DNA of 49,307 bases, from contig CAIWUU010000104.1 of assembly GCA_903915955.1 (NCBI GenBank), forward strand, positions 1 to 49,307. Reading direction: 5' to 3'. The position numbers and the translations under genes were made by a program. Origin of the DNA: an uncultured Chlorobiaceae bacterium (GTDB lineage: Bacteria > Bacteroidota > Chlorobiia > Chlorobiales > Chlorobiaceae). A model generated the notes under the pieces. It was not told the origin of the DNA. It worked only from the letters and a program-made list of their open reading frames with translations, and did not search any database. This document shows positions 35,189 to 47,974 of the stretch, one piece after another; positions within the stretch are counted from its first letter, which is position 1; each line of letters opens with the position of its first letter.

Positions 35189-37570
35189 TTACTCCAGCTC
35201 CACAAAGGTCACCCCATCCCCACCTTCTCCCCACTCGCCAAGCCGAAACCCCTTAACCGCCGTATGTTGCTGCAAACACTCCGCCGTTCTTTTGCGGAGC
35301 GAGCCGGTACCCTTGCCATGCAGGATCATCGCTGCATGAATGCGGTTAAGGCGCATGGTGTCAAGAAATCTCTCGATTTTCAGCGTTGCCTCATCAGCGG
35401 TCAACCCCCGCACATCAAGTTTTGTTGACTCAATCCCTGATGTCATGGCCGACCACGAACTTTTCTGCTGCCTCTGTTCAGGCTGTCGCAGACTCTTTTT
35501 TGCCTGGGTTTTCGATGTTTTTTCAAGGTTTTTCAGCGACGTGGTGAGCCTGAAATTACCGCAGAGCACCACCACACTCTCACCATGAACACTCTCAACC
35601 TCACCGGAAGTATTGGTATCAAGAATAGAGACAAGGTCACCCGCACGGATGGTACGATCAACCTTCGCCGCTGCTTCAGCTCTGGCGCGCAGAAGCAACT
35701 CACTCTTTTCGGCCTGCTGCTTTTTGATGCCAAGTTTTTTACGGGCCTCGTGTACCTTTTTATCGTCAGTCGGTGCCGCTTTAACCTCCTGCAGAATCTC
35801 GCGTATCTCCTGCCGGGCATGTTCCAGCTCCTTCTGAAGCTCCCGCGATGCTCCAAGCTTTGCATTTCGGCGCTTCTGCTCAAACGCCACCTCAGCTTGC
35901 TGCAATGAAAGCTCCCTTTTCTCACTATCCGCCTTCTCCCCTTCAAGCTGCTGCTTCAGCGTACGGTTCTCCTCAAAAAGACGGCTCAGGTCATCAAGCA
36001 TTCGGTCGAGCCCGATGCGCTCATGCAGCATAAAGCCCGATGCACGCTCAACCATTTTCCCCGGAAAGCCCATCCGCTTCATCATGGCAAAGGCAAAACT
36101 GTTGCCGGGCAGCCCCTTGACAAACATGAAGGTTGGCAGAAGCTCCGCCCTATCAAACTCCATCGCACCGTTCACCACACCCTCCCGTTCATGGGCGTAT
36201 GCCTTCAACTCGCCAAGGTGGGTGGTCACAATGGTCTTGGTGGAGCGACTGAGCAGCTCCTCAATCACTGCGCGGGCAATGGCTCCCCCCTCCTCCACAT
36301 CGGTACCGGCACAGAGCTCATCAATCAGCACCAGATCGCGACTGCCAGCACCATCAAGTATTGTCTTTATAGCGCCAAGATGGGAACTGAAGGTGGAGAG
36401 GTCATTTTCGATGGACTGGTCGTCACCAATCTCGATAAAAATGTCGCGGAAAAGGGGAAACACCGAGCTCTCGCTGCAAGGAAGCAGATAGCCGTGAACC
36501 AGCATACAACAGAGCAGTCCGGCGCTCTTCATCGCCACCGACTTTCCACCAGCATTGGGGCCGGAGATCACCAGTACCCGATCCTCATCATCCAGAATCA
36601 GGTCAAGAGGCTGCACCTCCTTGTGGCGATGCGAAATCAGCAGCCAGGGATGATACCCCTTCACAATGCGAAGTGCCTGCCCTTCGGTAATGGAGGGCAG
36701 CACCGCATGGGTTTCAACCGCAAAGCGCGCCCGTCCATAGAGGGCATCAAATGCCGCAAGCAGAGCTTCATTGATCTGGATGTTGTGGCGCTCCTGTCGA
36801 ATCTCCTCCGTCATCTCCTTCAGAATGCGCTCAATCTCCCGCCGCTCGCTGATCTGCAGATCCTGAATGCGGTTACTGATCTCCAGCGTCTCCGCAGGCT
36901 CAATAAAGACCGTCTGCCCTGAGCCAGAGTAGTCCTGAATATACCCGGCAATTTTGTACTTGTACTCCACCTTCAGCCCAAGCGTCAGACGGCCATTCTT
37001 GACCGCAACCCTCTCCTCCATCAGCCAGCCACTATCCTGAGAGCGACGAAGCAGACGCTCCATTCTCCGGCGAATCAGTTCACGACTGCTCAGCAACTCT
37101 CCCCTAATCATCAGGAGCGCACCACTCGCCGTATCGCGCACCCTCCCCTGCTCATCAACAATCCGGCGAATCCCCGCCTGAAGAGCGCTCTCAAGCCAAA
37201 GCTGCAGGGTAAAGTCATTGAGCAGCGGATAGACCTCGCGGTTGAGCGCCATGAACTTCCGCAACTGCACCGAAGAAAAGAGAAGATGATAGATATCCTG
37301 CAGCTCCTCCGTCTCCAGATAGCTCCCCAAAAGCTCCAGCTTTTTCAGCAGCGGTCGGGTGTCGGGCAGATACGAGAACGGAAGTGCAACCCCCTCCTGA
37401 AGCAGATTACGCAACTCAAGCAACCGCTCAAGCTCGGTAACAAGCGCCTGCCGCTCCCGTTGCGGGAGGGCTGCAAGAAGCTGGTCGCGCCCCATCGCCG
37501 AGAGGCAGAGCTGCGCGGCGTAGTGGGCTACTTTGTCGAATTCGAGCTTTTTGAGGGTGGTGGGGTTCAT
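35189..37570 (-). CDS. mutS2: MutS2 family ATPase with Smr domain
   Basis: A 793-aa MutS2 protein: N-terminal lever/clamp helices, then the ATPase domain with Walker A VISGPNAGGKSVAMKSAGLL (about 330-350), FIEIGDDQSIENDLSTFSSH and LVLIDELCAGTDVEEGG, a Glu-Lys-rich coiled coil (about 510-620), a KOW-like segment and a C-terminal Smr nuclease domain (LDVRGLTADEATLKIERFLD, MILHGKGTGSLR). MutS2 proteins limit recombination or rescue collided ribosomes rather than do mismatch repair. The region matches the family throughout and is intact. Confidence 0.95.
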   Translation of the reverse strand: MNPTTLKKLEFDKVAHYAAQLCLSAMGRDQLLAALPQRERQALVTELERLLELRNLLQEGVALPFSYLPDTRPLLKKLELLGSYLETEELQDIYHLLFSSVQLRKFMALNREVYPLLNDFTLQLWLESALQAGIRRIVDEQGRVRDTASGALLMIRGELLSSRELIRRRMERLLRRSQDSGWLMEERVAVKNGRLTLGLKVEYKYKIAGYIQDYSGSGQTVFIEPAETLEISNRIQDLQISERREIERILKEMTEEIRQERHNIQINEALLAAFDALYGRARFAVETHAVLPSITEGQALRIVKGYHPWLLISHRHKEVQPLDLILDDEDRVLVISGPNAGGKSVAMKSAGLLCCMLVHGYLLPCSESSVFPLFRDIFIEIGDDQSIENDLSTFSSHLGAIKTILDGAGSRDLVLIDELCAGTDVEEGGAIARAVIEELLSRSTKTIVTTHLGELKAYAHEREGVVNGAMEFDRAELLPTFMFVKGLPGNSFAFAMMKRMGFPGKMVERASGFMLHERIGLDRMLDDLSRLFEENRTLKQQLEGEKADSEKRELSLQQAEVAFEQKRRNAKLGASRELQKELEHARQEIREILQEVKAAPTDDKKVHEARKKLGIKKQQAEKSELLLRARAEAAAKVDRTIRAGDLVSILDTNTSGEVESVHGESVVVLCGNFRLTTSLKNLEKTSKTQAKKSLRQPEQRQQKSSWSAMTSGIESTKLDVRGLTADEATLKIERFLDTMRLNRIHAAMILHGKGTGSLRKRTAECLQQHTAVKGFRLGEWGEGGDGVTFVELE

Positions 37571-37921
37571 GGGGAAATGGTGATGGACGAATGTCTGCTG
37601 TTTTCTGAATATAGGGAACTGAGGTGACTATTTATTCAGTACGCATCTACAGGCAATACCCTGAGGTAAAAAGTGTCGTGGTCATAGTCCTACTGATAAT
37701 TATTATGCCTTAGTTATTATCTCATCATAATTTGATTTATATGAAATGAAAAAAATGGATAGTTTATTTATTTTAAATCAGTTGCGATACTCCACCAACC
37801 AGATCTTCTCCCTGTGCCCGAAAATGAATATCAAAAAAATCACGCAATGTGGCAGGAATTTGAGCAGAAATAATAACCGGACAGAGCAACACCGAAGCGT
37901 ACAAACTTCTGAACCACGATT
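37571..37921. other. Intergenic region at the start of the accessory island
   Basis: About 350 bp with very AT-rich sequence at 37680-37780. The minus strand holds an open frame ending at TAA 37773-37775 whose last 40 codons read like a protein (VIISAQIPATLRDFFDIHF, RAQGEDLVGGVSQLI) but that has no obvious start; it overlaps the end of the Fic gene by a few codons. It may be a small toxin-like gene of the Fic locus or a remnant (see findings). No hairpin is evident. Confidence 0.4.
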
Positions 37922-39385
37922 CTATCCCATCCCGGGCAACACCGTCGCAGCATACGCATCTGCAACAACTGCCTCAATCATCATCACTTCATCATCACTC
38001 AATGCGGCAAACTCTTTTCGGCGGCAACCGAGAGGGAGTTTCATTCCGTTTTGGGTGATGAACATGATGAGATCGCGTACCTGGCCTCCAGGCATGTCGA
38101 GGCGGTCATCAATCGCCCTCAGTGCACGATCATGACATTGCAGATAGTGCACCTCCTTCGGGAGCAGGGTTGTGATGGTATGCTCAACGCAGGCATAGAG
38201 ATATTCGGCAATCGCTGTGTAGTCGCCGAAGCGGTAGAGATCGGAGGTATCATTCAGCACTTCGACGTTGTGCTTTGGCGTTGGCTGCCAATCGATAGCG
38301 GTCATGAGCGGTGAACTGAACGCACGGAGGGTTTGCTGGTACTCCCCGATTCGCTCAAGCATGACAGCACTGACCGGAAAGACCATACCCGCCGAAGCAA
38401 ATTTTCGCTCGGCAAGAATATGGTGAACAAGCGCCCTGTGCATGCGGCCATTACCATCCTCAAAGGGGTGCATAAACACAAATCCAAAGGCAATCAGTGC
38501 GGCGTGAATGACGGGGTCAAGCTGGCCCTCGCTCATGATGCGATGGCTCTCCAGAAGCCCCTGCATCAAATCGGGGAGATCCTGTGGTCGCGCTCCGACA
38601 AACTCTGGAACTAGCTCGCCATCCCGGTCGCGCTCGCCCAGAAAAACTCCCTCTGTCCGAAGACCTTTGGCAACAAAACGGTTATCCTGAATGAGCTGGC
38701 CATGCATATCGAGAATTTCAGGAAGCGACAGCGGCTGGCAACCAGCATTTTGAATAACCTGTGCCCAGCGTTCGATCCGGTTCCGGGCGGGGCGCTCGCC
38801 CTCAATGGCAAAGGAGGCTCGGCTGTCGGCAAGCAGCAGAAAGCTTGCCGCACGACACCAGACATCCTGACTGGTTCGGCCCCTGACCTGTTCGATCCGA
38901 AAAGAGAGTGATGCCTCGGTGAAGGCTTTCAGCACACCTGTTTTGCGAACGACAGGGCAGAAGCCCGGATTGCCAGGAAGATTGTTTGTGATTTTGTGGC
39001 GAGGTGATTGCCGGGGCGGCCCGGTGAAATAACACTCCGGGTCAAGAAGCGGCAAATAGCGCAATCCGGATGAGGCATCTTCAACCTGAAGCCTCTCGCC
39101 AACGAGCCATTCATGGAAAAACCAAAGCCTCCGCGCTTGCTGTTTGCCCTGACTGGCTGTAATAATCGCGGTAATTGTCTCTGCGCCCAACCGAAGGAAA
39201 ATGCGTTTAAGCACAAGCAGGTCAAGCGTTTCATGCTTGAGTGCAAAAATAAGATGTCCGGCGATATCCCCTTTTGGCTGATATCGCTGGTCATAAAGAC
39301 GCATTCCCTTCTCCAACCGGACGCTTCCCCTCACATGCCCGGTCGCAACCGCACAGCGCTCCCGTAACGGCAGATCCAAACCCAA
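37922..39385 (-). CDS. Fic-domain protein, 5' end interrupted by an in-frame TGA
   Basis: A 487-aa Fic protein, which normally transfers AMP from ATP to target proteins. The core motif HPFEDGNGRMHR is at residues 306-317, and an inhibitory motif SFAIEGE (S-x3-E-G-E) at about 191-197 precedes it in the same chain, the layout of class II Fic proteins. The N-terminal region matches family members of this size. The frame extends upstream of the first possible start (TTG at 39385) into a conserved-looking WVGYAALLRA segment, but a TGA at 39416-39418 cuts it from an ATG at 39475. So it either begins at the weak TTG or is a nonsense mutant. Confidence 0.78.
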   Translation of the reverse strand: MGLDLPLRERCAVATGHVRGSVRLEKGMRLYDQRYQPKGDIAGHLIFALKHETLDLLVLKRIFLRLGAETITAIITASQGKQQARRLWFFHEWLVGERLQVEDASSGLRYLPLLDPECYFTGPPRQSPRHKITNNLPGNPGFCPVVRKTGVLKAFTEASLSFRIEQVRGRTSQDVWCRAASFLLLADSRASFAIEGERPARNRIERWAQVIQNAGCQPLSLPEILDMHGQLIQDNRFVAKGLRTEGVFLGERDRDGELVPEFVGARPQDLPDLMQGLLESHRIMSEGQLDPVIHAALIAFGFVFMHPFEDGNGRMHRALVHHILAERKFASAGMVFPVSAVMLERIGEYQQTLRAFSSPLMTAIDWQPTPKHNVEVLNDTSDLYRFGDYTAIAEYLYACVEHTITTLLPKEVHYLQCHDRALRAIDDRLDMPGGQVRDLIMFITQNGMKLPLGCRRKEFAALSDDEVMMIEAVVADAYAATVLPGMG

Positions 39386-39475
39386 TGCCCGCAGCAGAGC
39401 GGCATAACCAACCCATCAGCGAGTTCCATCAATGGCTGTCTGGCTATCGGTAACGATTGGAATGCTATCGGGCAT

Positions 39476-39805
39476 AATTGTCGAAAAACAGATGTTGCTG
39501 TCGAAATATCATGCATAATAACGCTTCTTGTCGAATTTTGCGCATTGGATTTGTGCGACATTTACAGTTTTCTTGCATCCTGAAACAGATTGCACAACTC
39601 AAACGGCGTTCAGGCTCCGGCATTTTCCGATTGATGTCAGTTGTCAGAATATATGACCATGAATGAACATGAGAGGCAGTCATATCCGGGCAATGAGGGT
39701 TCGTTAAGCATACCTCCAAAATGAGCACTATTAAAACATTTTTTGCTTCAATAGTAACTATCATTTATATTCTTTCAATAGGTTTCAAAACATAAAGCGG
39801 TACCG
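39476..39805. promoter_or_regulatory. Divergent intergenic region with three phased TGTCGAA repeats
   Basis: This 330-bp gap separates the Fic gene (minus) from the Xre-RES pair (plus). TGTCGAA occurs at 39479, 39499 and 39529, that is, spaced by 20 and 30 bp, close to whole turns of the helix, just upstream of the ATG (39475) of the Fic frame. This looks like an array of binding sites on one face of the DNA. The rest shows no gene; the 100 bp before the Xre gene are AT-rich. Confidence 0.5.
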
Positions 39806-40201
39806 ATGAGCACTCTCCTTGAGCATCAAACCATCACATCAAAAGATCGGGGAGCATTAGCCAAGATGGTGATGACGCTTTTCGACCACTGGGAGCTGAC
39901 GACAGAAGATCAGGCCGTTCTCTTAGGGCTTGCGCCATCCAACCGGGGAGCCTTGACGCGTTATCGAAAAGGCGAGCCAATTGGAACCAGTCGTGATCAG
40001 TATGAACGGGTCGGGCATTTACTCGCAATTCACAAGAATCTGCGTACGCTCTTTCCGAAAAACCGTGATCTTGCCTATCGCTGGATATCCACACGAAACA
40101 AAGCATTTGATAATCTTACTCCTGTTGAAGTCATCAAAGAGTGGGGGTTCGCCGGTCTTTTGATGGTGCGCTTCTATCTCGACCGTGCATGCGCCCTGTA
40201 A
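39806..40201 (+). CDS. MbcA/ParS/Xre-type antitoxin (DUF2384)
   Basis: A 131-aa antitoxin of a Xre-RES type II pair. The N-terminal part is a helix-turn-helix domain ([25 protein letters not shown], in two parts: [19 protein letters not shown] and [10 protein letters not shown]) and the C-terminus is a toxin-binding DUF2384 domain ([40 protein letters not shown]). The stop overlaps the RES gene start by 17 bp (40185-40201), showing coupled translation. Such proteins block the RES enzyme's active site and repress their own promoter. Confidence 0.92.
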
Positions 40202-40934
40202 CCTGCTGCGCCAAATGGATAACCTCTTCTCCCATATCACTGTAGCCGATATTCATCAGGACTTGCTACGTAATATCGTCGCCTTGAGTGAATCAGAGGA
40301 TCCTTTCGACGATTTAAGCAGCAATCCCGAAGAGTGGCTTGTGGCTCGTCAGCTCGAATCCGATGCCAGACCTCTGCCTTATCAGTCGCACACCCCGGAA
40401 ATCCATCGTCCTTTTGAAGATGCCTTATGGTTCAAAGCGATAAACTGGCCGTTTAAAAACCGACAGGCAAGCCGATTTTCTGATGGATCATTCGGAGTAT
40501 GGTATGGCAGCGACAGGCTCGAAACATCCGTCCATGAATCGGCTTACCACTGGGTTCGGGGTTTACTCTGCGATGCTGGTTTTGAGCATGAAGAGGTGAT
40601 CATTGAGCGCACACTCTACGCCGTCGCGTGTGATGCAATATTGCTTGATTTTTGCCCTGTCGCTGCCAACGATCCAACTCTTCTTCACAAAACCGATTAC
40701 ACCTTCACGCAGTCCGTCGGTGCAAGAATCCATCGCGAAGGTCATCCTGGCCTGCTCACCTTGTCTGCTCGACACCAGGGAGGGCTCAATTATGCCATTC
40801 TGAACCCCAATGTTCTCTTCAATCCAAGGCTGCAGAGTCAACTAAGCTACAGGCTTCATGGGAAAACCATTACGGTAGAAGAACATCCCGGAGTTCCCTG
40901 TATGGAAATAGCGATTGATACTTTCTGGTCTTGA
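40185..40934 (+). CDS. RES-domain toxin
   Basis: A 249-aa RES protein, a relative of ADP-ribosyltransferases that degrades or transfers NAD+ and so stops growth. The key residues are visible: [25 protein letters not shown], given in parts as QASRFSDG (Arg of the RES name), [11 protein letters not shown] (Tyr) and [11 protein letters not shown] (Glu), and the Ser-containing end [12 protein letters not shown]. The length is normal for this family, with an extra 80-residue N-terminus. Paired with the DUF2384 antitoxin directly upstream, and intact. Confidence 0.92.
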
Positions 40935-40956
40935 CCGCTCATGATGACGACACATG

Positions 40957-41433
40957 CTAAAAGAACAGCTTTTCAAAAAAGCTTCGGGCTCTTGAACCAG
41001 CATAAAGGTCAACCGTCTTCATCAGTTGTGCTTGATCCATGCTTCGTGCCTTCTCGGCAACGTTCCTCAGCAGGCGTTCCTTGTCCTCGTCAAGGAGATG
41101 AATATTGTTCACAAGATCCACAATCAAAAACTCCTGGGTACTTTCAGCAGGAAAACGCGGCCTTTTCAAAAAATAGAAGTGGCATCCATTGAGTGTATGC
41201 TGCCCGTCACGCCGGTAATTGTAAACCAGCTTCTCATTATAAAGCTGCGTAGTGCCAACACCAAGAGCATTATAGCTGTTCAGCGAGGCAATATAAAAGT
41301 GGTCATCTTTAAGAAAGGCTCGAACCAACGCTGCATCTTCAGGTGGCACGTTCCCGAATGCTGTTGTTTGCGGAGAGTAGTAAACGCCACCGGAAAGTTT
41401 TTGAAGCTCCCCTTGCTTGACAAGTTGCTGCAT
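40957..41433 (-). pseudogene. Truncated AbiEi-like antitoxin (DUF6088), copy of the gene at 46.9 kb
   Basis: The translated 158 residues match residues 33-189 of the protein at 46890-47486 almost throughout (about 90% identical), for example PPEDAALVRAFLKDDHFY and LDEDKERLLRNV. The first part of the wHTH domain is missing, and the end changes after EKLF. Homology runs at DNA level from about 40963 to 41461; beyond 41461 the sequence is unrelated and a TAG stops the frame. No AbiEii partner is next to it. It is a partial duplication, not a working antitoxin as far as can be seen. Confidence 0.85.
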
Positions 41434-41461
41434 ATTGCGATCAACAGCCTTTGAGCATTTC
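40963..41461 (-). repeat. Long direct repeat, copy 1 (partner at 46920-47418)
   Basis: About 499 bp matching the AbiEi-like gene at 46920-47418 without any gap and with the same orientation; the offset is 5957 bp at both ends. The two copies bracket the SLATT, TIR, AAA, Res-remnant and AbiEii genes, so homologous recombination between them could delete that block. Confidence 0.85.
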
Positions 41462-41813
41462 TTCGGTAAGCCCTATGCAACTGCTGAAAGGGCAACGCAA
41501 GGATGCTGTCCGAAAAAAGGTGTCTTGCTCCCGTAAACCGAAAACGGAGCTATAGCCGATGTATCACCCTGTTAACCTCATCGCAGTCCGCGCCTGGAAC
41601 AAAACTGTTGGCACCATCTCTATTACCACATAAGGAATGGTGGCTCATCATGTACGATGATCGTCATCACAAGAAAAAATTTAAACCCAATTTATTACAT
41701 TTACGAGGAAGTAAATTCCTGCAAAAATGAATTCTGGATTATGATGATTGATAAGGAAGAGATTTTGAATGCAAATGAAATTTTTATAACCGGTTATCGT
41801 CCAAAAATCTAAA
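41434..41813. other. Intergenic region after the truncated AbiEi-like copy
   Basis: About 380 bp. After the homology ends near 41461 the sequence has short frames on both strands but none with family resemblance; 41690-41800 is AT-rich and should hold the promoter of the DUF4231 gene. Possibly the remnant of an inserted element, but no terminal repeats or transposase motif were seen. Confidence 0.4.
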
Positions 41814-42257
41814 ATGCCACAACTGACCTCATCCGATTATCTGGAACAACGGCTGGATAACCAGATCAACTGGTACTCAGACAAAAGTTCTCGCTGCAAA
41901 GTTTGGTACAGAAGCCTCCGCATAATTGAGATTGTCGCGGCGGCAATTATTCCGCTACTTTCGGGCATGGATAATCTGTTGTACGGAAACTGGATAATTG
42001 GTGGACTTGGCATGTTGATTGCCATTGCGGCAGCAACCGGCGGTCTGTTCAAATACCATGAGAACTGGATTCAGTACCGCGCTACGTCCGAGGCGCTGAA
42101 GCATGAGAAGTTTCTGTTTCTTGGTGGAAGTGCGCCCTATGATGGAGAGAATGCGTTTCAGCTCCTTGTGCAGCATGTTGAAGGGCTTATTTCAAAGGAG
42201 AACACCAATTGGACGATAGCCGTCAAGAGTGAGCCGAAGGTTATCGGCAAGGGATAA
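41814..42257 (+). CDS. DUF4231 protein, SLATT-like two-TM predicted effector
   Basis: A 147-aa protein with an N-terminal helical part (SSDYLEQRLDNQINWYSDKS), two membrane helices (IVAAAIIPLLSGMDN and GNWIIGGLGMLIAIAAATGGL) and a C-terminal helical region (YRATSEALKHEKFLFLGGSA). This layout is DUF4231, part of the SLATT group that was predicted to form pores in nucleotide-dependent conflict systems. It has no cyclase (SMODS) or SLOG partner here; its neighbours are a TIR protein and an AAA ATPase on the opposite strand, convergent with it. Start at ATG 41814 just after an AT-rich stretch. Confidence 0.85.
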   Translation: MPQLTSSDYLEQRLDNQINWYSDKSSRCKVWYRSLRIIEIVAAAIIPLLSGMDNLLYGNWIIGGLGMLIAIAAATGGLFKYHENWIQYRATSEALKHEKFLFLGGSAPYDGENAFQLLVQHVEGLISKENTNWTIAVKSEPKVIGKG

Positions 42258-42270
42258 AAAATATTTTCCC

Positions 42271-42289
42271 CTGGGGGCTTTGCCCCCGG
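42271..42289. other. GC-rich hairpin between convergent DUF4231 and TIR genes
   Basis: GGGGGC (42273-42278) and GCCCCC (42282-42287) pair with a TTT loop, extended by one T.G and one C-G pair to an 8-bp stem. It could be a shared terminator for both convergent genes, but there is no T-run directly behind the stem. It also lies 30 bp beyond the stop of the TIR gene, where a diversity-generating retroelement would have its cruciform. Confidence 0.6.
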
Positions 42290-42319
42290 TACCCCCTTAA
42301 TTGTTGAATAGATAAATGG

Positions 42320-43630
42320 TTAAAAAGCCCGCACCGCCCGAACACACCATCCGTCGGCCTTGCCGTCGTAGCCCTGGTAGCCACCGTTGAAGTCCTGGTA
42401 CCATGCGTTATTTGCACTGTACTCCGTAGAACCCCAGTAGTAGTAGCCGGAAAAACCGCCAACAGCACTTTTCGTGAGATAGAGCTTATTCAGTTCATCC
42501 TTGTTCGGCAAGTGCCAATTATCACCAATAACTGCACATGCTTGTTTCGCAGATTCCCAAGCATAGACCTCTGATAGGTCCGCTTTTGCTGCAATCAATC
42601 CGTGCTGACCTGTAGCATCAAGCCAAGCAATTTTTCCACCACCATATTCGTCACCGATGTTCAACGTTTTTTTCGCTTCCACTTCTTGAGGAATGGCAAG
42701 AGTCTTTTTATCTGCACTCAATTTTGCAGGTTTCGCTTCACGACGGACCACATCTTTCTCTGCCTTCAACCTCGCGGCCTCAGCTTTAGCATCTTTCGCC
42801 GCAGTCAAACGTGCGTCCTCAGCTTTTCGACGGACATCGGCCTCTTGCCTTGTCTTTGCGGCTTCAGCTTCACGACGAGTGGCCGCATCTTTCTCTGCTT
42901 TCAACCGCGCAGCCTCAGCTTTAGCATCTTTCACCGCCTTCAACCGTGCCGCCTCCGCTTTTCGACGAAAATCGGCCTCATTATTTACCTTTGCTACCTC
43001 AATGCTGAGAGCAGATTTATCTTCAACTTTCGAGGATGACTGGTTCATACTCCAGACAACACCAAATATAACCAGCATAACAACCGCGACAGCTATTACA
43101 ATCTGGTTTTTTTGAGCCCAGCTTACGTTTCCAAATGGTTGCCGCTCCGATTTACGTTGCGGTGATGTTTGCGTAGCACCCTCAAATGAAACCGAGTCCG
43201 GCTTTGACACCGGCAAAGAGTCTGTAACAGGCAGTGTTGCAGAAGAAATTTTGGATTCAATCGCGCCAATGAGTAACTGAAATCCCTGATGAGCTTTATT
43301 GTTTTTCCAGTCGGAGAGATCCGCTGCATGAATACGCCTGAATCCCATTGGCGGCTCAACCGTATCAAGAAAAAGAGGAACAAGGAGACCCTTTTTCTTG
43401 GCCACCTCAGCTTCTTCTTTAACCCAATCAGACTGTATAGAAGAGTGCGACCAGACAACAAGAACACATGGCGACTCTTCCAACGCTTTACCAATGTAGT
43501 TATCCCATGTTTTCCCTGGCGGAATCGTTTTATCCCAGAAAACACTCCAGCCGTGCTTTTCAAGCACGTTGACTATTGGCTTGACACGCTCCTGATCCTC
43601 ATGAGCGTAGCTAATAAAAATATCGGACAT
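42320..43630 (-). CDS. TIR domain - TM - coiled coil - DUF1566 (C-lectin-like) protein
   Basis: A 436-aa four-part protein. Residues 1-128 are a TIR domain (SDIFISYAHEDQERVKPIV, HSSIQSDWVKEEAEVAKKK, with a candidate catalytic Glu at 72 or 73), which in bacteria often hydrolyses NAD+. Residues about 175-195 are one TM helix. Residues about 220-305 are a Lys-Ala-Glu coiled coil with a tandem 45-residue repeat. Residues about 322-436 are a DUF1566/Lcl_C domain, a C-type-lectin-like fold, ending WCVRAVRAF. The last 42 codons look like the variable region of a diversity-generating retroelement (see findings). It lies 85 bp downstream of an AAA ATPase gene on the same strand. Suggested role: a sensor-effector whose outward domain binds a ligand. 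Confidence 0.86.
   Translation of the reverse strand: MSDIFISYAHEDQERVKPIVNVLEKHGWSVFWDKTIPPGKTWDNYIGKALEESPCVLVVWSHSSIQSDWVKEEAEVAKKKGLLVPLFLDTVEPPMGFRRIHAADLSDWKNNKAHQGFQLLIGAIESKISSATLPVTDSLPVSKPDSVSFEGATQTSPQRKSERQPFGNVSWAQKNQIVIAVAVVMLVIFGVVWSMNQSSSKVEDKSALSIEVAKVNNEADFRRKAEAARLKAVKDAKAEAARLKAEKDAATRREAEAAKTRQEADVRRKAEDARLTAAKDAKAEAARLKAEKDVVRREAKPAKLSADKKTLAIPQEVEAKKTLNIGDEYGGGKIAWLDATGQHGLIAAKADLSEVYAWESAKQACAVIGDNWHLPNKDELNKLYLTKSAVGGFSGYYYWGSTEYSANNAWYQDFNGGYQGYDGKADGWCVRAVRAF
42323..42448 (-). repeat. Putative DGR-type variable region at the 3' end of the TIR gene
   Basis: Codons 395-436. Within codons 411-426 ten codons are TAC, GAC, GGC, TAC, GGC, TAC, GAC, GGC, GCC and GAC, all NNC and all reachable from AAC by changing adenines only. 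The final codons (WCVRAVRAF) are of the invariant type seen after variable regions. Neither template repeat nor reverse transcriptase is in the window, so the call is tentative. Confidence 0.45.
42770..42985 (-). repeat. Tandem repeat in the TIR protein's coiled coil (135-bp period)
   Basis: CCTCAGCTTTAGCATCTTTC occurs at 42778 and again at 42913, exactly 135 bp (45 codons) apart. In the protein the unit is RRKAE(A/D)ARL.A.KDAKAEAARLKAEKD, present about twice. The period is a multiple of three, so copy-number change would alter stalk length without a frameshift. Confidence 0.8.
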
Positions 43631-43715
43631 GAATTTTGTTTAACATTATTTTTAGTTGCCCAGAATATAGCCATTTACCCCCATTTTTCACGCGGCATCA
43701 CCACAACACCATCAA

Positions 43716-44894
43716 CTACAGAGGCATCGATCGTCGCATAAATTCATCAAACACTGGAACAGTAAACGCCATCAAACCATGAGCCGGGCTGTAAATCATC
43801 CCTTTTTTAATAAGCTTCGAACGCACAGGGCTGAGGGTAGCACTGCTTTCAACACCAAGCTGCCCGGAAATATTGGCCGTTCGATATGGTCCTTGACCAA
43901 GCTCAGCCATAGCACGGAGATAGCGCTTTTCTCCATCGGTCAGCCGGTCGAAACGAACCCTGAAAAAGTTCTTGTCGAGACGATGAACAACCAGCTCTGT
44001 CGTTTGCTGAACAAGCTGGAGGGTTATTGGCGATGACTCCGCCTGATTCCATACCTGATATCCCCACTCCTGCAAAAAATATGGATAGCCTTTCGTCAAA
44101 CGATAGATTTCATGGAGTGCTGACGCCTCAAACTCAACCCCTTCTTCCTGCACAGGGTCTTGCAGGGCAAGGTTAGCATCTTCTTCCTCAAGCGGACCAA
44201 TATCAGGAAAATTAAAGAGCCGTTCGGCATAAGACTTTGCATCTCCCGCCATTCCTGCTAAAATCGGCAGACCTGCTCCCACAAGTACCAATGGCAATTG
44301 GAGTTGCTGCATTTTATGCATGGCCATAATCAGGGCATTCAGCTCAAGAGATGAGAGGTATTGAATTTCATCAACCAGAATTGCAACGGCGCAATTCCGC
44401 TCAACTGCTGCCTCTCCAACGGCAATAAAAAGATTGGTAAGATCGACTTCCAGATCACCACTATCAGCCGCGCCCTTTTCGGGGTCTCTATCCAAACCAA
44501 CATCAAATTCTCCCACCGACACCTTTATTGCGCCAATAAAGCTCATAAGGACCGCAAGCCCCCGGCGCACTTTGTTACCCGTACCAGCCATGCGGTCGAG
44601 TTCAAAAAGCAGAGTTCGCAATTGCGGCACCAGCAGCACAGCTAACAACTTGTTTTCAGAGGCTTCAACAAAAATGGTGCGGTACCCATCCTGCTCCGCC
44701 ATGCGCTTCATTTCATTCAGCAGAACAGTTTTACCAACACCGCGAAGCCCCATCATCAAAAGACTTTTTTCAGGCTTTTTGCGACGGACACGCCCGAAAA
44801 GAATGTGCGCCTGCTCCAGAAGAGCATCACGACCAGCAAGTTCAGGCGGCGGCGAACCAGCTCCAGGAGAAAAAGGGTTACTAATTGGATCCAT
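43716..44894 (-). CDS. AAA ATPase (Orc1/Cdc6-like ATP-binding protein)
   Basis: A 392-aa ATPase with Walker A LMMGLRGVGKTVLL (about 46-59) and Walker B AVAILVDEIQYLSS (about 169-182), an Arg-containing sensor region (LVGAGLPILAGMAGDAKSYA), and a C-terminal winged-helix part (YFLQEWGYQVWNQAE and following, GVESSATLSPVRSKLIKKG). This type of STAND/AAA protein occurs in many bacterial conflict loci but also elsewhere. It starts the two-gene unit with the TIR gene, 85 bp upstream. It may act as the signal-dependent switch for TIR; that is inference. Confidence 0.85.
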   Translation of the reverse strand: MDPISNPFSPGAGSPPPELAGRDALLEQAHILFGRVRRKKPEKSLLMMGLRGVGKTVLLNEMKRMAEQDGYRTIFVEASENKLLAVLLVPQLRTLLFELDRMAGTGNKVRRGLAVLMSFIGAIKVSVGEFDVGLDRDPEKGAADSGDLEVDLTNLFIAVGEAAVERNCAVAILVDEIQYLSSLELNALIMAMHKMQQLQLPLVLVGAGLPILAGMAGDAKSYAERLFNFPDIGPLEEEDANLALQDPVQEEGVEFEASALHEIYRLTKGYPYFLQEWGYQVWNQAESSPITLQLVQQTTELVVHRLDKNFFRVRFDRLTDGEKRYLRAMAELGQGPYRTANISGQLGVESSATLSPVRSKLIKKGMIYSPAHGLMAFTVPVFDEFMRRSMPL

Positions 44895-45027
44895 AACAGC
44901 ACGAGGTATTACAGAAATGAGAGAGCTTTAATACCTATTTATATCAATTTATAAATAAATATAACGTGATATACCTCTTTATAACAAGAGATCGATAGAT
45001 ATTGATAGAAATCAAATGATAGCGAAG
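44895..45027 (-). promoter_or_regulatory. AT-rich promoter region upstream of the AAA-TIR unit
   Basis: The stretch at 44934-45000 is strongly AT-rich (TTTATAAATAAATATAAC and similar), quite unlike the flanks, and it directly precedes the AAA gene. It should contain its promoter; I cannot fix -10 and -35 boxes with confidence. Confidence 0.4.
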
Positions 45028-45090
45028 CTATTTCTCCATCCCCCCCAACTGCCGCATCAGATCCTTGCGCGCCATCCCGTACACGTACAG
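45028..45090 (-). pseudogene. Short 3' remnant of a lost gene, possibly restriction enzyme
   Basis: On the minus strand LYVYGMARKDLMRQLGGMEK ends in TAG at 45028-45030. It reads like the end of a real protein, but the frame is not continuous with anything upstream. Its closeness to the Res remnant suggests that both come from one decayed restriction locus (inference). Confidence 0.35.
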
Positions 45091-45101
45091 CAATGATTAG
45101 A

Positions 45102-45745
45102 TTAGAAATTCCTGGTATCTCTTGATCTACAAACCAAAGCCACCAAAGAGAATAGGTATGTCAGAGGGTATTTGGAAAGTCTCCATGGAATTTCAAGGAA
45201 ATGGCTCTCCTCAAAGGGTTCAAACAGATCGCCCTGCTGCACGGAGAGGAGAGGCACCTCTGCGAGAGGTTCCGAGACCTTGTAGAAGAGGTCAAGCCTG
45301 CCCTGTTCTCCGGCTGGCATACGAGTTATCAGCTCTTTGGCCTCCTGCCGGTTAAAGCCGTTTTGAATCAGGGCATCTTCGAGGGCGTTGGCCGCCTCAA
45401 CAAAAATTTTCGATGCTGAAAAGGCGTAGGCCATGTTCAGCTCTACCCGCTGCTTCCGCTTTGCCTGGTGCAGCCGCATGATCCGTCCGAGAATCTGTTC
45501 GACCGCCGTGGAGGAGCGCATCTCCGCAACGGAGCAGAGGACGTAGGCAAAGGGGCAGTCCCACCCCTCGCGCAATGCCTGTACGGTAATAGATAAAGCG
45601 TACTTTGCAACTGGGCAGATCAAGGTCAAGACCCTCCGGCCCCCTGTCGGTTCCGGTGGCTCGGCAAATCTGCTCCGATGGAATATTGAAATCGTCAATC
45701 AGGCATTGCTCAACAACCTCAACAATTCACGGCTTCATCATTCAG
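45102..45745 (-). pseudogene. Frameshifted fragment of type III restriction Res / SF2 helicase
   Basis: The longest part (45102-45698) encodes TVQALREGWDCPFAYVLCSV and SSTAVEQILGRIMRLHQAKRK, motifs V and VI of an SF2 helicase as in type III restriction Res subunits. Upstream in another frame the sequence reads QICRATGTDRGPEGLDLDLP and SCKVRFI, which is the part normally just before ITVQALREGWDC. The two fit together if one T is removed at about 45591, so there is a single-base insertion. A second break lies near 45730. Helicase motifs I-III and the nuclease domain are absent, so it is a remnant. Confidence 0.85.
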
Positions 45746-45940
45746 CATCGATCAAAATTTGTATCAGATTGATCATTATACCTGTTGATACCTCTTCATA
45801 AACCAATAACCAAATCTCCGACAGTTAACCTTTGAGCAATTACCTGAAAGATAGCCATTTACCATCTTTTTCATGCACGTCAAGCGACTAACCTGAGTTG
45901 TAATACACCCGCCACAGGATTTTTGGAAACTGGAATCAAG

Positions 45941-46900
45941 TTACAATCGACCCAGTTTTGTTCGAATCATATCCAAAACCTCATCAAAGGGCGGTTGTAC
46001 CTGATAATAAAGTGCTGCACGACGTTCATACTCTTTTTTGTACAGCATCCGCCGGGCTTCGTCAGCCATAAGAAGTGCATCATTTTCAGCGAGTGGATAC
46101 TGAAGGTCAACTGCCGGAAAACGACGCTTTTTATGCTCGTGGTACTCGATAGTTCCGATAAATGCCTGTACCTGTTCATTCTGCAGCAGACAAAAAACAT
46201 CGTAGTAATGCCGCATAAAATTCAAAGGAAACTCGTCGCTTGAATCCTGGTGGCGACGATATTTCGTCACAATAGCCTGAAGCTTTTCCACAAAGGTATA
46301 ACCTGGATGATAGCATTGAATGTGCAGCGCTCTATTATCAATGACATTAACATGCTTTGCCAAGGCGAAATCTAATGCCCATGAACTGATGTCCATCGGC
46401 TGATTGGGAATGATATCATCAAATCCGACTTCAAGCAGAACTCCCTCTTTCGCGCTGCCATCTGATGGAAATTTGGCATCATAAAAAAGACGAATACCGC
46501 CACTGAAATATTTCGGAAGGCTATCAAACATGATATCCCGCCCAACCTTGACAATGCCTGGGATACGAATGCTGTCCGATAAATAATCATAAAAGTCTTT
46601 GCGACTTTTGCGATCCTTCTCCTTGTCATGATTTTTCGATGTCCGAACTTGCCCCCCTTCAGGTGGGACAATGTGAATATCAATATCTTCGGAGAAACGG
46701 TGGATAATGCCGTACCCCTTGGAGAGAGAGGTTCCGCCTTTAAGCTGAAAATCGTATCCGGCTTTTTGGAGCCCATAAAGAGAGTGCACAAGCCAATAAT
46801 CCTTCTCAACCAAATAAGGGTCTATCCTGCGCTCACCCGCCACAACTCTGATCAAATCAGAAAAATCATGGTGTTCATGGAGATATATTTCAGGCGACAT
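45941..46900 (-). CDS. AbiEii/AbiGii-family nucleotidyltransferase toxin
   Basis: A 319-aa toxin component of an AbiE-type (type IV) toxin-antitoxin system. The nucleotidyltransferase signature is LKGGTSLSKGYGIIHRFSED followed by IDIHIV, with the Gly-Gly-Ser and the metal-binding Asp residues; next are HYYDVFCLLQ and DSSDEFPLNFMRHYYD with the conserved RHxxD. Family members add nucleotides to tRNA or other RNA. The start overlaps the end of the antitoxin-type gene by 11 bp, so the two form one operon in antitoxin-toxin order. Intact. Confidence 0.9.
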   Translation of the reverse strand: MSPEIYLHEHHDFSDLIRVVAGERRIDPYLVEKDYWLVHSLYGLQKAGYDFQLKGGTSLSKGYGIIHRFSEDIDIHIVPPEGGQVRTSKNHDKEKDRKSRKDFYDYLSDSIRIPGIVKVGRDIMFDSLPKYFSGGIRLFYDAKFPSDGSAKEGVLLEVGFDDIIPNQPMDISSWALDFALAKHVNVIDNRALHIQCYHPGYTFVEKLQAIVTKYRRHQDSSDEFPLNFMRHYYDVFCLLQNEQVQAFIGTIEYHEHKKRRFPAVDLQYPLAENDALLMADEARRMLYKKEYERRAALYYQVQPPFDEVLDMIRTKLGRL

Positions 46901-47486
46901 GGCTCATCTTTTCAGCGGTGAAGAGTTTTTCAAAAAAGCTTCGGGCTCTTGAACCTGCATAAAGATCAACGCTCTTCATCAGTTGTGATTGATCCATACT
47001 TCGGACTTTCCCGGCAACATTCCTGAGAATGCGTTCCTTATCCTCGTCCAGGAGATGAATATTGTTCACAAGATCCACAATCAAAAACTCCAATGTACTT
47101 TCAGAGGGAAAGCGTGGCCTTTTCAAAAAATAGAAGTAGCGCCCATTGAGTGTATGCTGTCCGTCACGCCGATAATTGTAAACCAGCTTCTCGTTATAGA
47201 GCTGCGTGGTACCAACACCAAGAGCATTATAGCTGTTCAGGGAGGCGATATAAAAGTGATCATCTTTAAGAAAGGCACGAACCAGCGCTGCGTCTTCAGG
47301 TGGCACATTCCCGAATGCTGTTGTTCGTGGGCAGTAGTAAACACCTCCAGAAAGTTTTTGCAGCGCCCCTTGCTTGACAAGTTGCTGCATATTACGATCA
47401 ACAGCCTTTGACCATTTCGCCAAATCCGAACGTCGGTACACTTGCCCCGGTTGAAGATGTTGTTTCAGTTCATCTGCTTTCGACAT
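46890..47486 (-). CDS. AbiEi-type antitoxin / DUF6088 protein
   Basis: A 198-aa protein with an N-terminal winged helix (YRRSDLAKWSKAVDRNMQQL and GGVYYCPRTT) and a conserved part (DHFYIASLNSYNALGVGTTQ, NYRRDGQHTLNGRYFYFLKR). It should be the antitoxin and repressor of the AbiEii-type nucleotidyltransferase encoded directly downstream. A truncated copy of the same gene lies at 40957-41433. The ATG at 47486 is followed by KADELKQHLQPGQVYRRSD, matching the family start. The short AT-rich stretch upstream (47510-47560) should hold its promoter. Confidence 0.88.
   Translation of the reverse strand: MSKADELKQHLQPGQVYRRSDLAKWSKAVDRNMQQLVKQGALQKLSGGVYYCPRTTAFGNVPPEDAALVRAFLKDDHFYIASLNSYNALGVGTTQLYNEKLVYNYRRDGQHTLNGRYFYFLKRPRFPSESTLEFLIVDLVNNIHLLDEDKERILRNVAGKVRSMDQSQLMKSVDLYAGSRARSFFEKLFTAEKMSHVA
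46920..47418 (-). repeat. Long direct repeat, copy 2 (partner at 40963-41461)
   Basis: The body of the complete AbiEi-like gene. It matches copy 1 without gaps at about 90% identity. Since copy 1 lacks both ends of the gene, this copy is the likely source of the duplication or both come from related loci. Confidence 0.85.
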
Positions 47487-47617
47487 GGATGCTCCTGTGG
47501 GCTGATGTAATGCCTATTTTTTAGTCTAAATTTCATGCAATTTAATAAAAGAAGCTGCAAATAGAAAGATGTGAGCATGGATCTGGTTTATTCGCAATCG
47601 TGTCGTTCAGCGTTCTT

Positions 47618-47974
47618 TCAGAAGAAGCTCGGAAGCTCCCGCTTCATAACAGCTCCAACAGTGCCGTAAATCTCACCACATACCCCTCTTAAATCATGCT
47701 CTCTATCGAAGGTGTGTCCCAGCTTGCTTGTCCATAGTCCTGATGTTAATTGACGTGCGGCGCATGTGGGTTTGGTGGTATTTGGGTCAACCAAAATGGC
47801 AACTTTTTCAAACCCGTCTTCAAACTCTTCTGACTCACAGCGAGCATACCGCAAAGTCTCGAACGCTGCGATAAAACATTCAAGCGTGACTTTTCTCGGA
47901 ATTTGTTGAGGCCAAAATGCAATGAACTCGATCACAATCCCGGTGAAAGTACCCCAATTATAACTCTCATTCAC
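47618..47974 (-). CDS. Conserved hypothetical protein, third gene of the ParE/RHH locus
   Basis: A 118-aa product starting with GTG (47972-47974), 14 bp after the stop of the ParE-type toxin gene. I recall many bacterial proteins with GFEKVAxYxDxxGxPTHAARQL...WTSKLG; here it reads DGFEKVAILVDPNTTKPTCA and ARQLTSGLWTSKLGHTFDRE. The pattern is widespread, so the gene is probably real, though its function is unknown to me. The frame is open upstream of the GTG, so the start is not certain. No TM segment. Confidence 0.6.
   Translation of the reverse strand: MNESYNWGTFTGIVIEFIAFWPQQIPRKVTLECFIAAFETLRYARCESEEFEDGFEKVAILVDPNTTKPTCAARQLTSGLWTSKLGHTFDREHDLRGVCGEIYGTVGAVMKRELPSFF

What the first reader, a model, noticed from the sequence alone, without database searches (positions are those of the whole stretch)
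39386..39475. Fic gene interrupted by TGA 20 codons after its ATG
From the ATG at 39475 the frame runs MPDSIPIVTDSQTAIDGTR, then TGA (39416-39418), and then continues WVGYAALLRALGLDLPL into the Fic protein. As I recall, a GYAAL-type segment is conserved in the N-terminus of this Fic family, so the stop looks like a nonsense mutation in an otherwise intact gene. Alternatives are a sequencing error, readthrough, or a restart at TTG 39385.
Basis: partly seen in the sequence, partly recalled or inferred. Interest (0 to 1): 0.5.

Follow-up and report, generated by a model that had tools for sequence, protein, structure and literature searches.

The report
Decaying Fic defence-candidate gene in Chlorobium
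A gene for a protein-modifying enzyme that may defend green sulfur bacteria against viruses is cut short by a stop codon near its start, and related species are losing the same gene in other ways; its promoter carries an evenly spaced row of short repeats that hints that the enzyme controls its own gene.

Summary
From ATG 39475 (minus strand) 19 sense codons run to an in-frame TGA at 39418-39416; then 497 codons stay open. The gene belongs to PDC-S24, a candidate anti-phage family of PADLOC (E 1.6e-172). Five distinct intact copies in the same genus or family (77-78% identity) start at the same ATG and read arginine at codon 20; the segment after the TGA is conserved (G23 invariant in 34 of 34). 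The stop is a nonsense mutation or a sequence error, not a mis-chosen start.

At the same chromosomal locus, upstream of mutS2, one relative has lost the gene's 5' end and Fic domain, and another the whole gene, keeping only its upstream element. Loss here looks recurrent. Substitutions still show purifying selection, so the stop is young or a shortened protein is made.

Beyond the finding: upstream lies an array of direct repeats spaced exactly 30 and 20 bp (TTCGACA at -60, -30, -10). A 0/30/50 comb beats all shuffles in 46 of 53 family members, against 0 to 5 of 53 for three control spacings, although the word differs between groups. I infer an autoregulatory operator. The stop is ordinary; the array is the new part.

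The parts
37922..39475 (-). Fic-family gene (PDC-S24 type), interrupted by an in-frame TGA at codon 20
   Evidence: PF02661 E 1.6e-15; PADLOC PDLC04966 PDC-S24 E 1.6e-172
39416..39418 (-). premature TGA (codon 20); five distinct intact relatives read arginine here
39473..39475 (-). ATG start, at the same place in five distinct close relatives
39529..39535 (-). array repeat 1, TTCGACA, -60 from the ATG
39499..39505 (-). array repeat 2, TTCGACA, -30
39479..39485 (-). array repeat 3, TTCGACA, -10
39383..39385 (-). in-frame TTG proposed as restart; I see no Shine-Dalgarno-like sequence in the 20 bases upstream
39302..39304 (-). in-frame ATG (codon 58) with GGAG 6 nt upstream: the best-looking internal restart; the three relatives aligned there (L034-L036) have no ATG, GTG or TTG at this position
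38798..38815 (-). inhibitory motif SFAIEG, upstream of the Fic motif
38444..38470 (-). Fic catalytic motif HPFEDGNGR, intact
37940..38089 (-). C-terminal helical region (model residues 463-512), inside the stretch aligned to Fic structures that carry a C-terminal HTH (CbFic2, SoFic); putative DNA-binding part
35189..37570 (-). downstream neighbour, open over 793 aa, taken as mutS2 (gene name recalled); marks the locus in G013 and G014
39806..40201 (+). Xre-type antitoxin of a RES/Xre toxin-antitoxin pair, divergent neighbour
40185..40934 (+). RES-domain toxin of the same pair
40957..41433 (-). truncated orphan copy of an AbiEi antitoxin gene (first 32 residues missing, no AbiEii seen beside it)

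Best explanation
This is a Fic (AMP-transferase type) candidate defence protein of the PDC-S24 family whose reading frame has been closed by a nonsense mutation at codon 20, as an early step in losing the gene. Shown by comparison: the start codon, the homology across the stop, the intact catalytic and inhibitory motifs, and two further, different losses at the same locus upstream of mutS2 in related species. Inferred: the stop is a real, recent mutation and not an assembly error; little or no full-length protein is made. Before inactivation the protein most likely worked like other inhibited Fic toxins, silent through its SFAIEG helix and AMPylating a cell target on infection. It probably repressed its own promoter by binding, through its C-terminal helix-turn-helix region, to the phased array of three TTCGACA repeats just upstream of the ATG. 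That function and that binding are inferences.
For: Frame and motifs. Family. Intact relatives with the same ATG and arginine at codon 20. Nearest relative G014/L068 (526 of 587 nt identical): the 5' end is not found in the 145 nt left before the contig end, one base is missing, about 620 bp holding the Fic motif are deleted, and the C-terminal part has further gaps; it lies on the same strand upstream of mutS2, with an extra 4.3 kb between. G013/L196: 5' flank, array and ATG kept, the rest of the gene gone, mutS2 following. One copy of this protein in the window's genome. Recency: dN/dS 0.18-0.20 against three intact copies; on the window branch since the split from L068, 9 of 24 polarised changes are nonsynonymous, P 1e-4 to 9e-4 under neutrality. 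No SelA match and no tRNA-Sec over the cut-off.
Against: There is a single assembly with no reads, so a base error or a minority strain cannot be excluded. Only one lesion is seen in 1.55 kb, and the gene still shows purifying selection. An ATG at codon 58 with a good Shine-Dalgarno-like sequence could give a shortened protein that keeps the Fic domain. Defence activity of PDC-S24 is a database label; I found no test of it. Binding of the array by the Fic protein itself is untested.
Confidence: 0.8

Rival explanations
1. The gene is still used: ribosomes start inside, most plausibly at ATG 39304 (codon 58), less so at TTG 39385, giving an N-terminally shortened Fic protein.
For: ATG 39304 has GGAG 6 nt upstream; the Fic, inhibitory and C-terminal parts remain intact; purifying selection is visible on the window branch; one plasmid relative (L173) is annotated from about residue 59.
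Against: The three relatives aligned at that place (L034-L036) have no ATG, GTG or TTG there. A start at codon 58 removes G23, the helix of residues 23-31 and two short strands, which are modelled with high confidence (mean pLDDT 95-96 for residues 21-30). The TTG has no visible ribosome-binding sequence.
Confidence: 0.12
2. The TGA is a sequencing or assembly error, or a minority variant in a mixed population, and the gene is intact.
For: The genome is a 201-contig draft. The rest of the gene is clean and shows constraint.
Against: The lesion is a substitution, not an indel in a homopolymer run. The same locus has lost the gene in two relatives, so loss is plausible here.
Confidence: 0.15
3. 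The TGA is read as an amino acid (readthrough or selenocysteine).
For: The downstream frame is open and constrained.
Against: No SelA match. No tRNA-Sec over the cut-off: 13 sub-threshold places, of which the 8 given as loci hold ordinary Ser, Leu, Trp, Thr, Tyr and Cys tRNAs; the other 5 were not examined one by one. Relatives read an ordinary arginine codon there.
Confidence: 0.02
4. The true start is downstream of the TGA and the upstream 19 codons are non-coding.
For: A mechanical ORF list gives the 487-aa ORF from the TTG.
Against: Five distinct close relatives read straight through from the ATG equivalent to 39475; L034 and L036 have no other start codon up to about codon 40. 14 of 15 opened plasmid annotations start before the GY segment.
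Confidence: 0.03

Closest known systems
PDC-S24 (PADLOC-DB, PDLC04966; 'phage defence candidate', expansion recalled)
   Same: Nearly full-length match, profile positions 7-490 of 497 from residue 2 after the TGA, E 1.6e-172
   Different: The window copy has a premature TGA. I found no paper that holds the name (0 papers), so its defence role is a label only.
CccR of Yersinia pseudotuberculosis (PMC9755527, passages read)
   Same: Fic protein with N-terminal inhibitory helix and C-terminal HTH that represses its own promoter near the -35 and -10 boxes
   Different: CccR binds palindromes; here the repeats are direct, 30 and 20 bp apart. No DUF4172 match here. Secretion was not examined.
CbFic2 of Coxiella burnetii, PDB 8cil (PMC10628234, passages read)
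   Same: Top row of the structural second look: Z 19.1, rmsd 3.4, 297 aligned, tied with 4rgl at Z 18.9; TSAIEG inhibitory helix and a C-terminal HTH whose DNA binding regulates the enzyme
   Different: CbFic2 has an N-terminal DUF4172 domain. The PDC-S24 protein has about 170 other residues there without a Pfam match, and no histone target applies.
SoFic (PDB 3eqx, 3zec; PADLOC SoFic; Sofic in PMC12249575, abstract and outline read)
   Same: Fic fold and C-terminal region match; Sofic protects against phage by AMPylation according to the abstract
   Different: NF046030 scores 29.5 bits against a cut-off of 550, so it is not a member. The Sofic abstract names a downstream antitoxin gene, AS1; I did not look for short ORFs of that kind here.
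AbiEi / Rv2827c antitoxins (PMC7319586, passages read)
   Same: The modelled N-terminal domain ranks Rv2827c (Z 6.8) and AbiEi (Z 4.5) first and second of 239 aligned chains. These antitoxins also autoregulate through promoter repeats.
   Different: Z is below 8, ranks 3-5 are within 1 Z unit of AbiEi, and there is no sequence-profile similarity (hhalign probability 0.4%). Their repeats are inverted.

Membership tests
PDC-S24 (PADLOC) | Full-length profile match | tested here: met
   E 1.6e-172, positions 7-490 of 497
PDC-S24 (PADLOC) | Anti-phage activity | not testable with these tools
   needs plaque assays; no paper with the name
Fic/Fido AMP transferases (PF02661) | Fic domain over the curated cut-off and HPFx[D/E]GN[G/K]R motif | tested here: met
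   58.1 bits against 24; HPFEDGNGR; motif as given in the abstract of PMC7479194 (listing)
Fic proteins with N-terminal inhibitory helix (class II; class name and motif form recalled) | [S/T]xxxE[G/N] motif upstream of the Fic motif | tested here: met
   SFAIEG in the window; S221 and E225 invariant in 34 of 34. In most rows of the wider family the last residue is H, not G/N.
SoFic equivalog (NF046030) | Score over cut-off | tested here: not met
   29.5 against 550 bits
CccR/CbFic2 type (DUF4172-Fic-HTH) | N-terminal DUF4172 domain | tested here: not met
   Only Fic is over its cut-off in three relatives searched to E 1; no DUF4172 among the matches of 35 N-domains to E 1
CccR/CbFic2 type (DUF4172-Fic-HTH) | C-terminal HTH that binds DNA | tested here: inconclusive
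   The structure alignment runs to model residue 511 against CbFic2 residue 374; binding not testable
Pseudogene | Disabled frame relative to intact homologues at a homologous start | tested here: met
   TGA at codon 20; five distinct intact copies
Pseudogene | Relaxed selection | tested here: not met
   9 of 24 polarised changes nonsynonymous; constraint still visible, so at most a very young pseudogene
AbiEi antitoxins (N-terminal domain) | Sequence-profile similarity | tested here: not met
   hhalign probability 0.4%, on a shallow 5-row AbiEi alignment
AbiEi antitoxins (N-terminal domain) | Shared fold of the antitoxicity domain | tested here: inconclusive
   1zel Z 6.8, rmsd 4.8, 149 aligned; 6y8q Z 4.5; Foldseek E 0.26 at best

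The most novel reading that the evidence does not exclude
PDC-S24 Fic proteins are self-contained, self-repressing defence switches. Each gene carries its own helically phased operator of direct repeats (30 and 20 bp apart, often with a fourth site a further 30 bp up, all on one face of the helix) across its promoter. Its own Fic protein reads the array through a C-terminal winged helix, and operator words diverge with the protein while the spacing is fixed by the geometry of the bound oligomer. The unassigned N-terminal domain may be an antitoxin-like (AbiEi-like) sensor fused in cis.
Probability: 0.45. Interest if true: 0.6.

Novelty: new variant of a known kind. Interest (0 to 1): 0.4.

Why it matters
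The stop codon itself is an ordinary nonsense mutation, useful as one of three different stages of loss of the same gene at one locus. The array matters more. It gives a testable regulatory model for a widespread but uncharacterised defence-candidate family. It predicts which stretch of each promoter to footprint. It also suggests that a Fic enzyme can be controlled by promoter geometry in which the spacing, not the word, is conserved.

Tried and rejected
Selenocysteine: no SelA match, no tRNA-Sec over cut-off. A start downstream of the TGA: rejected by intact relatives. A relationship of the N-domain to AbiEi by sequence: not supported. Phage records: one weak partial match, 19% of the query.

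Array tests. The first repeat search, by word count in each sequence, was uninformative for the window itself (two copies; 14 of 60 shuffles as good). The evidence came from spacing, tested over many sequences. The first 35 sequences suggested lags 20, 30 and 50 (17, 21 and 20 of 35; distal controls 2, 1 and 0). The next 18 were new and gave 8, 7 and 6 of 18 (distal controls 1, 0 and 0). The 53 are the window, 31 of the 45 loci, the 16 plasmid loci opened (of 297 plasmid records matched) and the 5 full-length loci. Of, L039, L058, L062 and L067 were usable but left out (L039 looks the same as L038 upstream); the other ten (L044, L053, L068, L070, L071, L073, L075-L078) are partial, broken or have no clear start. 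Of the close copies, L005, L006 and L007 were not in the tests (L005 duplicates L034). The 53 are not phylogenetically independent. Seven of 53 did not pass the 0/30/50 comb. Start codons of unannotated relatives were chosen by me (nearest ATG or GTG, or TTG, before the GY segment). The shuffles keep base composition only (20 per sequence); those keep dinucleotides. The 67 control Fic genes use a first-ATG rule, so some control starts may be wrong; 11 of 67 controls show at least one of the three lags, against 46 of 53.

A mistake found on re-checking: I had taken L068 as lying directly beside mutS2. L068 itself holds no mutS2; mutS2 lies farther along the same contig, after an extra 4.3 kb.

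Literature: I searched for the family name and for Fic with autorepression, direct repeats, phage defence or AbiEi and saw no report of this array in the listings; the library holds open-licence papers only.

Full report
Observation. The sequence is as described: ATG 39475, TGA 39418-39416 as codon 20, and then 497 open codons to 37922. The window lies in a 2.52 Mb, 201-contig genome with one copy of this protein and two other Fic-domain genes. One same-genus genome, G030, has a contig of the same length as the record titled Chlorobium sp. L304-S-6D and shares sequence with it, so I take the genus to be Chlorobium.

What the gene is. Pfam finds a Fic domain. PADLOC-DB gives a nearly full-length match to PDC-S24 with E 1.6e-172. 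The catalytic motif HPFEDGNGR and the inhibitory motif SFAIEG are intact. A model of the intact relative L036 (mean pLDDT 86) aligns with CbFic2 (Z 19.1, rmsd 3.4, 297 residues) and with SoFic (Z about 18, rmsd about 7) up to residue about 511; the CbFic2 paper places a C-terminal HTH at residues 304-362 (passage).

The stop is not a wrong start. Five distinct close copies (L034, identical over 1500 nt to G030/L005; L035; L036; G035/L006; G021/L007) begin at the same ATG and read arginine at codon 20. L034 and L036 have no other ATG, GTG or TTG between the upstream stop and about codon 40; L035 has one more, a TTG at codon 31. In 34 aligned members G23, three residues after the TGA position, is invariant. 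Fourteen of 15 annotated plasmid relatives that I opened start before this segment; the exception, L173, is annotated from about residue 59.

Loss at one locus. In G014/L068 526 of 587 nt are identical, but the 5' end is not found in the 145 nt left before the contig end, one base is missing, about 620 bp holding the Fic motif are deleted, and the C-terminal part has further gaps. The remnant and mutS2 lie on one contig, same strand and order as in the window. The window bases 37631-37642 correspond there to an extra stretch of about 4.3 kb that carries a 1341-codon ORF. In G013/L196 the 5' flank, the array and the ATG are present (82% over 165 positions), the rest of the gene is missing, and the sequence goes on at window 37687 with mutS2 (protein 94%) and the next gene, 90% over 3054 positions. 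G003/L014 holds an ORF of 153 aa that covers only the N-domain of a more distant copy. The window's TGA fits this series as its earliest stage. It must be recent, or the product is still partly used: dN/dS against three intact copies is 0.18-0.20, and 9 of 24 polarised changes on the window branch are nonsynonymous, where neutrality would give about 17 or 18 (269 codons compared, 24 sites ambiguous). L068 shows 20 of 39; its gaps may inflate that, and the branches do not differ significantly (Fisher P 0.31).

The upstream array. The window has TTCGACA at -60, -30 and -10. L034, L035 and L036 share this element, whereas sequence further upstream is unrelated. The pattern TTCGAC-N24-TTCGAC-N14-TTCGAC occurs once each in 5 of 61 genomes and never in the backwards control. 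Four hits lie directly upstream of this gene and the fifth is the G013 scar. In distant relatives the words differ (for example TAATnATTTTT or TTTTTCGAT) but the spacing is the same. Within 120 nt of the start, 7-of-8 repeats at lags 20, 30 and 50 occur in 25, 28 and 26 of 53 members. This compares with 6, 3 and 2 of 67 other Fic genes and with dinucleotide-shuffle means of 3.1, 2.7 and 1.9 of 53 (maxima 9, 7 and 6). A comb at 0/30/50 beats all 20 shuffles in 46 of 53 and one at 0/30/60/80 in 38 of 53; control combs at 0/25/45, 0/33/55 and 0/27/43 do so in 5, 1 and 0 of 53. Spacings near two and three helical turns put the sites on one face of the helix (inference). In the window, two promoter-like hexamer pairs overlap the array (9 of 12 matches each, weak consensus hits).

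How it most likely works. CccR, a Fic protein with a C-terminal HTH, represses its own promoter through palindromes (PMC9755527, passages read). CbFic2 is regulated by DNA binding through its C-terminal HTH; the same paper used random DNA and says that DNA binding by SoFic had not been shown (PMC10628234, passages read). By analogy I infer that PDC-S24 proteins bind their own arrays. In the 15 annotated plasmid neighbourhoods I saw no regulator gene that recurs beside the gene. What does recur is an AAA ATPase gene next to it in L153 and L154 and a cyclic-di-GMP-type gene (GGDEF or EAL; function recalled) downstream in L167, L168 and L169 (the plasmid gene tables are incomplete). The N-terminal 170 residues have no Pfam family. 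Their model (pLDDT 92) places two AbiEi-type antitoxin structures first and second among 239 chains, but with Z of only 6.8 and 4.5, no significant Foldseek E-value and no sequence-profile support. I treat that as a lead only.

Verdict. As a finding the nonsense mutation is ordinary. The conserved spacing of the promoter repeats in this candidate defence family is the part that a specialist would want to test.

Noticed in passing
window 40957-41433 (-): Truncated AbiEi antitoxin copy: 96% identical over 157 residues to a 198-aa copy on contig C36 of the same genome, lacking the first 32 residues and without an AbiEii gene seen beside it; a TAG lies in frame just upstream.
   Followed up: partly
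window 45941-47486 (-): AbiEi-like gene (198 aa) and adjacent 319-aa gene, probably the AbiEii toxin (name by position, recalled); the same pair is in G014/L178.
   Followed up: no
window 39806-43630: Cluster of toxin-antitoxin and defence-like genes: RES/Xre pair, AbiEi remnant, DUF4231/SLATT membrane protein, TIR-domain protein with an Lcl_C domain.
   Followed up: partly
window 39636-47914 against L196: In G013 the sequence homologous to window 39635 is followed within 10 bases by that homologous to 47915 (93% over 502 positions), so the 8.3 kb that holds the neighbouring toxin-antitoxin and TIR genes is absent there.
   Followed up: partly
L196 (G013:C89): An operator scar: the array and ATG survive beside mutS2 after deletion of the rest of the fic gene.
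   Followed up: yes
L199 (G014:C20 55956-60276): About 4.3 kb inserted between the fic remnant and mutS2 in G014 carries a 1341-codon ORF that looks like an NTPase with a TIR/SEFIR-like stretch and WD repeats (by eye, recalled); part of the stretch reads N.
   Followed up: no
L153 and L154: On two alphaproteobacterial plasmids an AAA ATPase gene follows the PDC-S24 fic gene, and in L153 an ATP-dependent helicase gene after it.
   Followed up: no
L167, L168, L169: GGDEF or EAL domain genes (in L168 a bifunctional diguanylate cyclase/phosphodiesterase) lie downstream of the fic gene on three of 15 annotated plasmids opened.
   Followed up: no
A1 column of residue 226: The inhibitory motif ends in G in the Chlorobium and some Bacteroidota rows but in H in most other rows, although S221 and E225 are invariant.
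   Followed up: no
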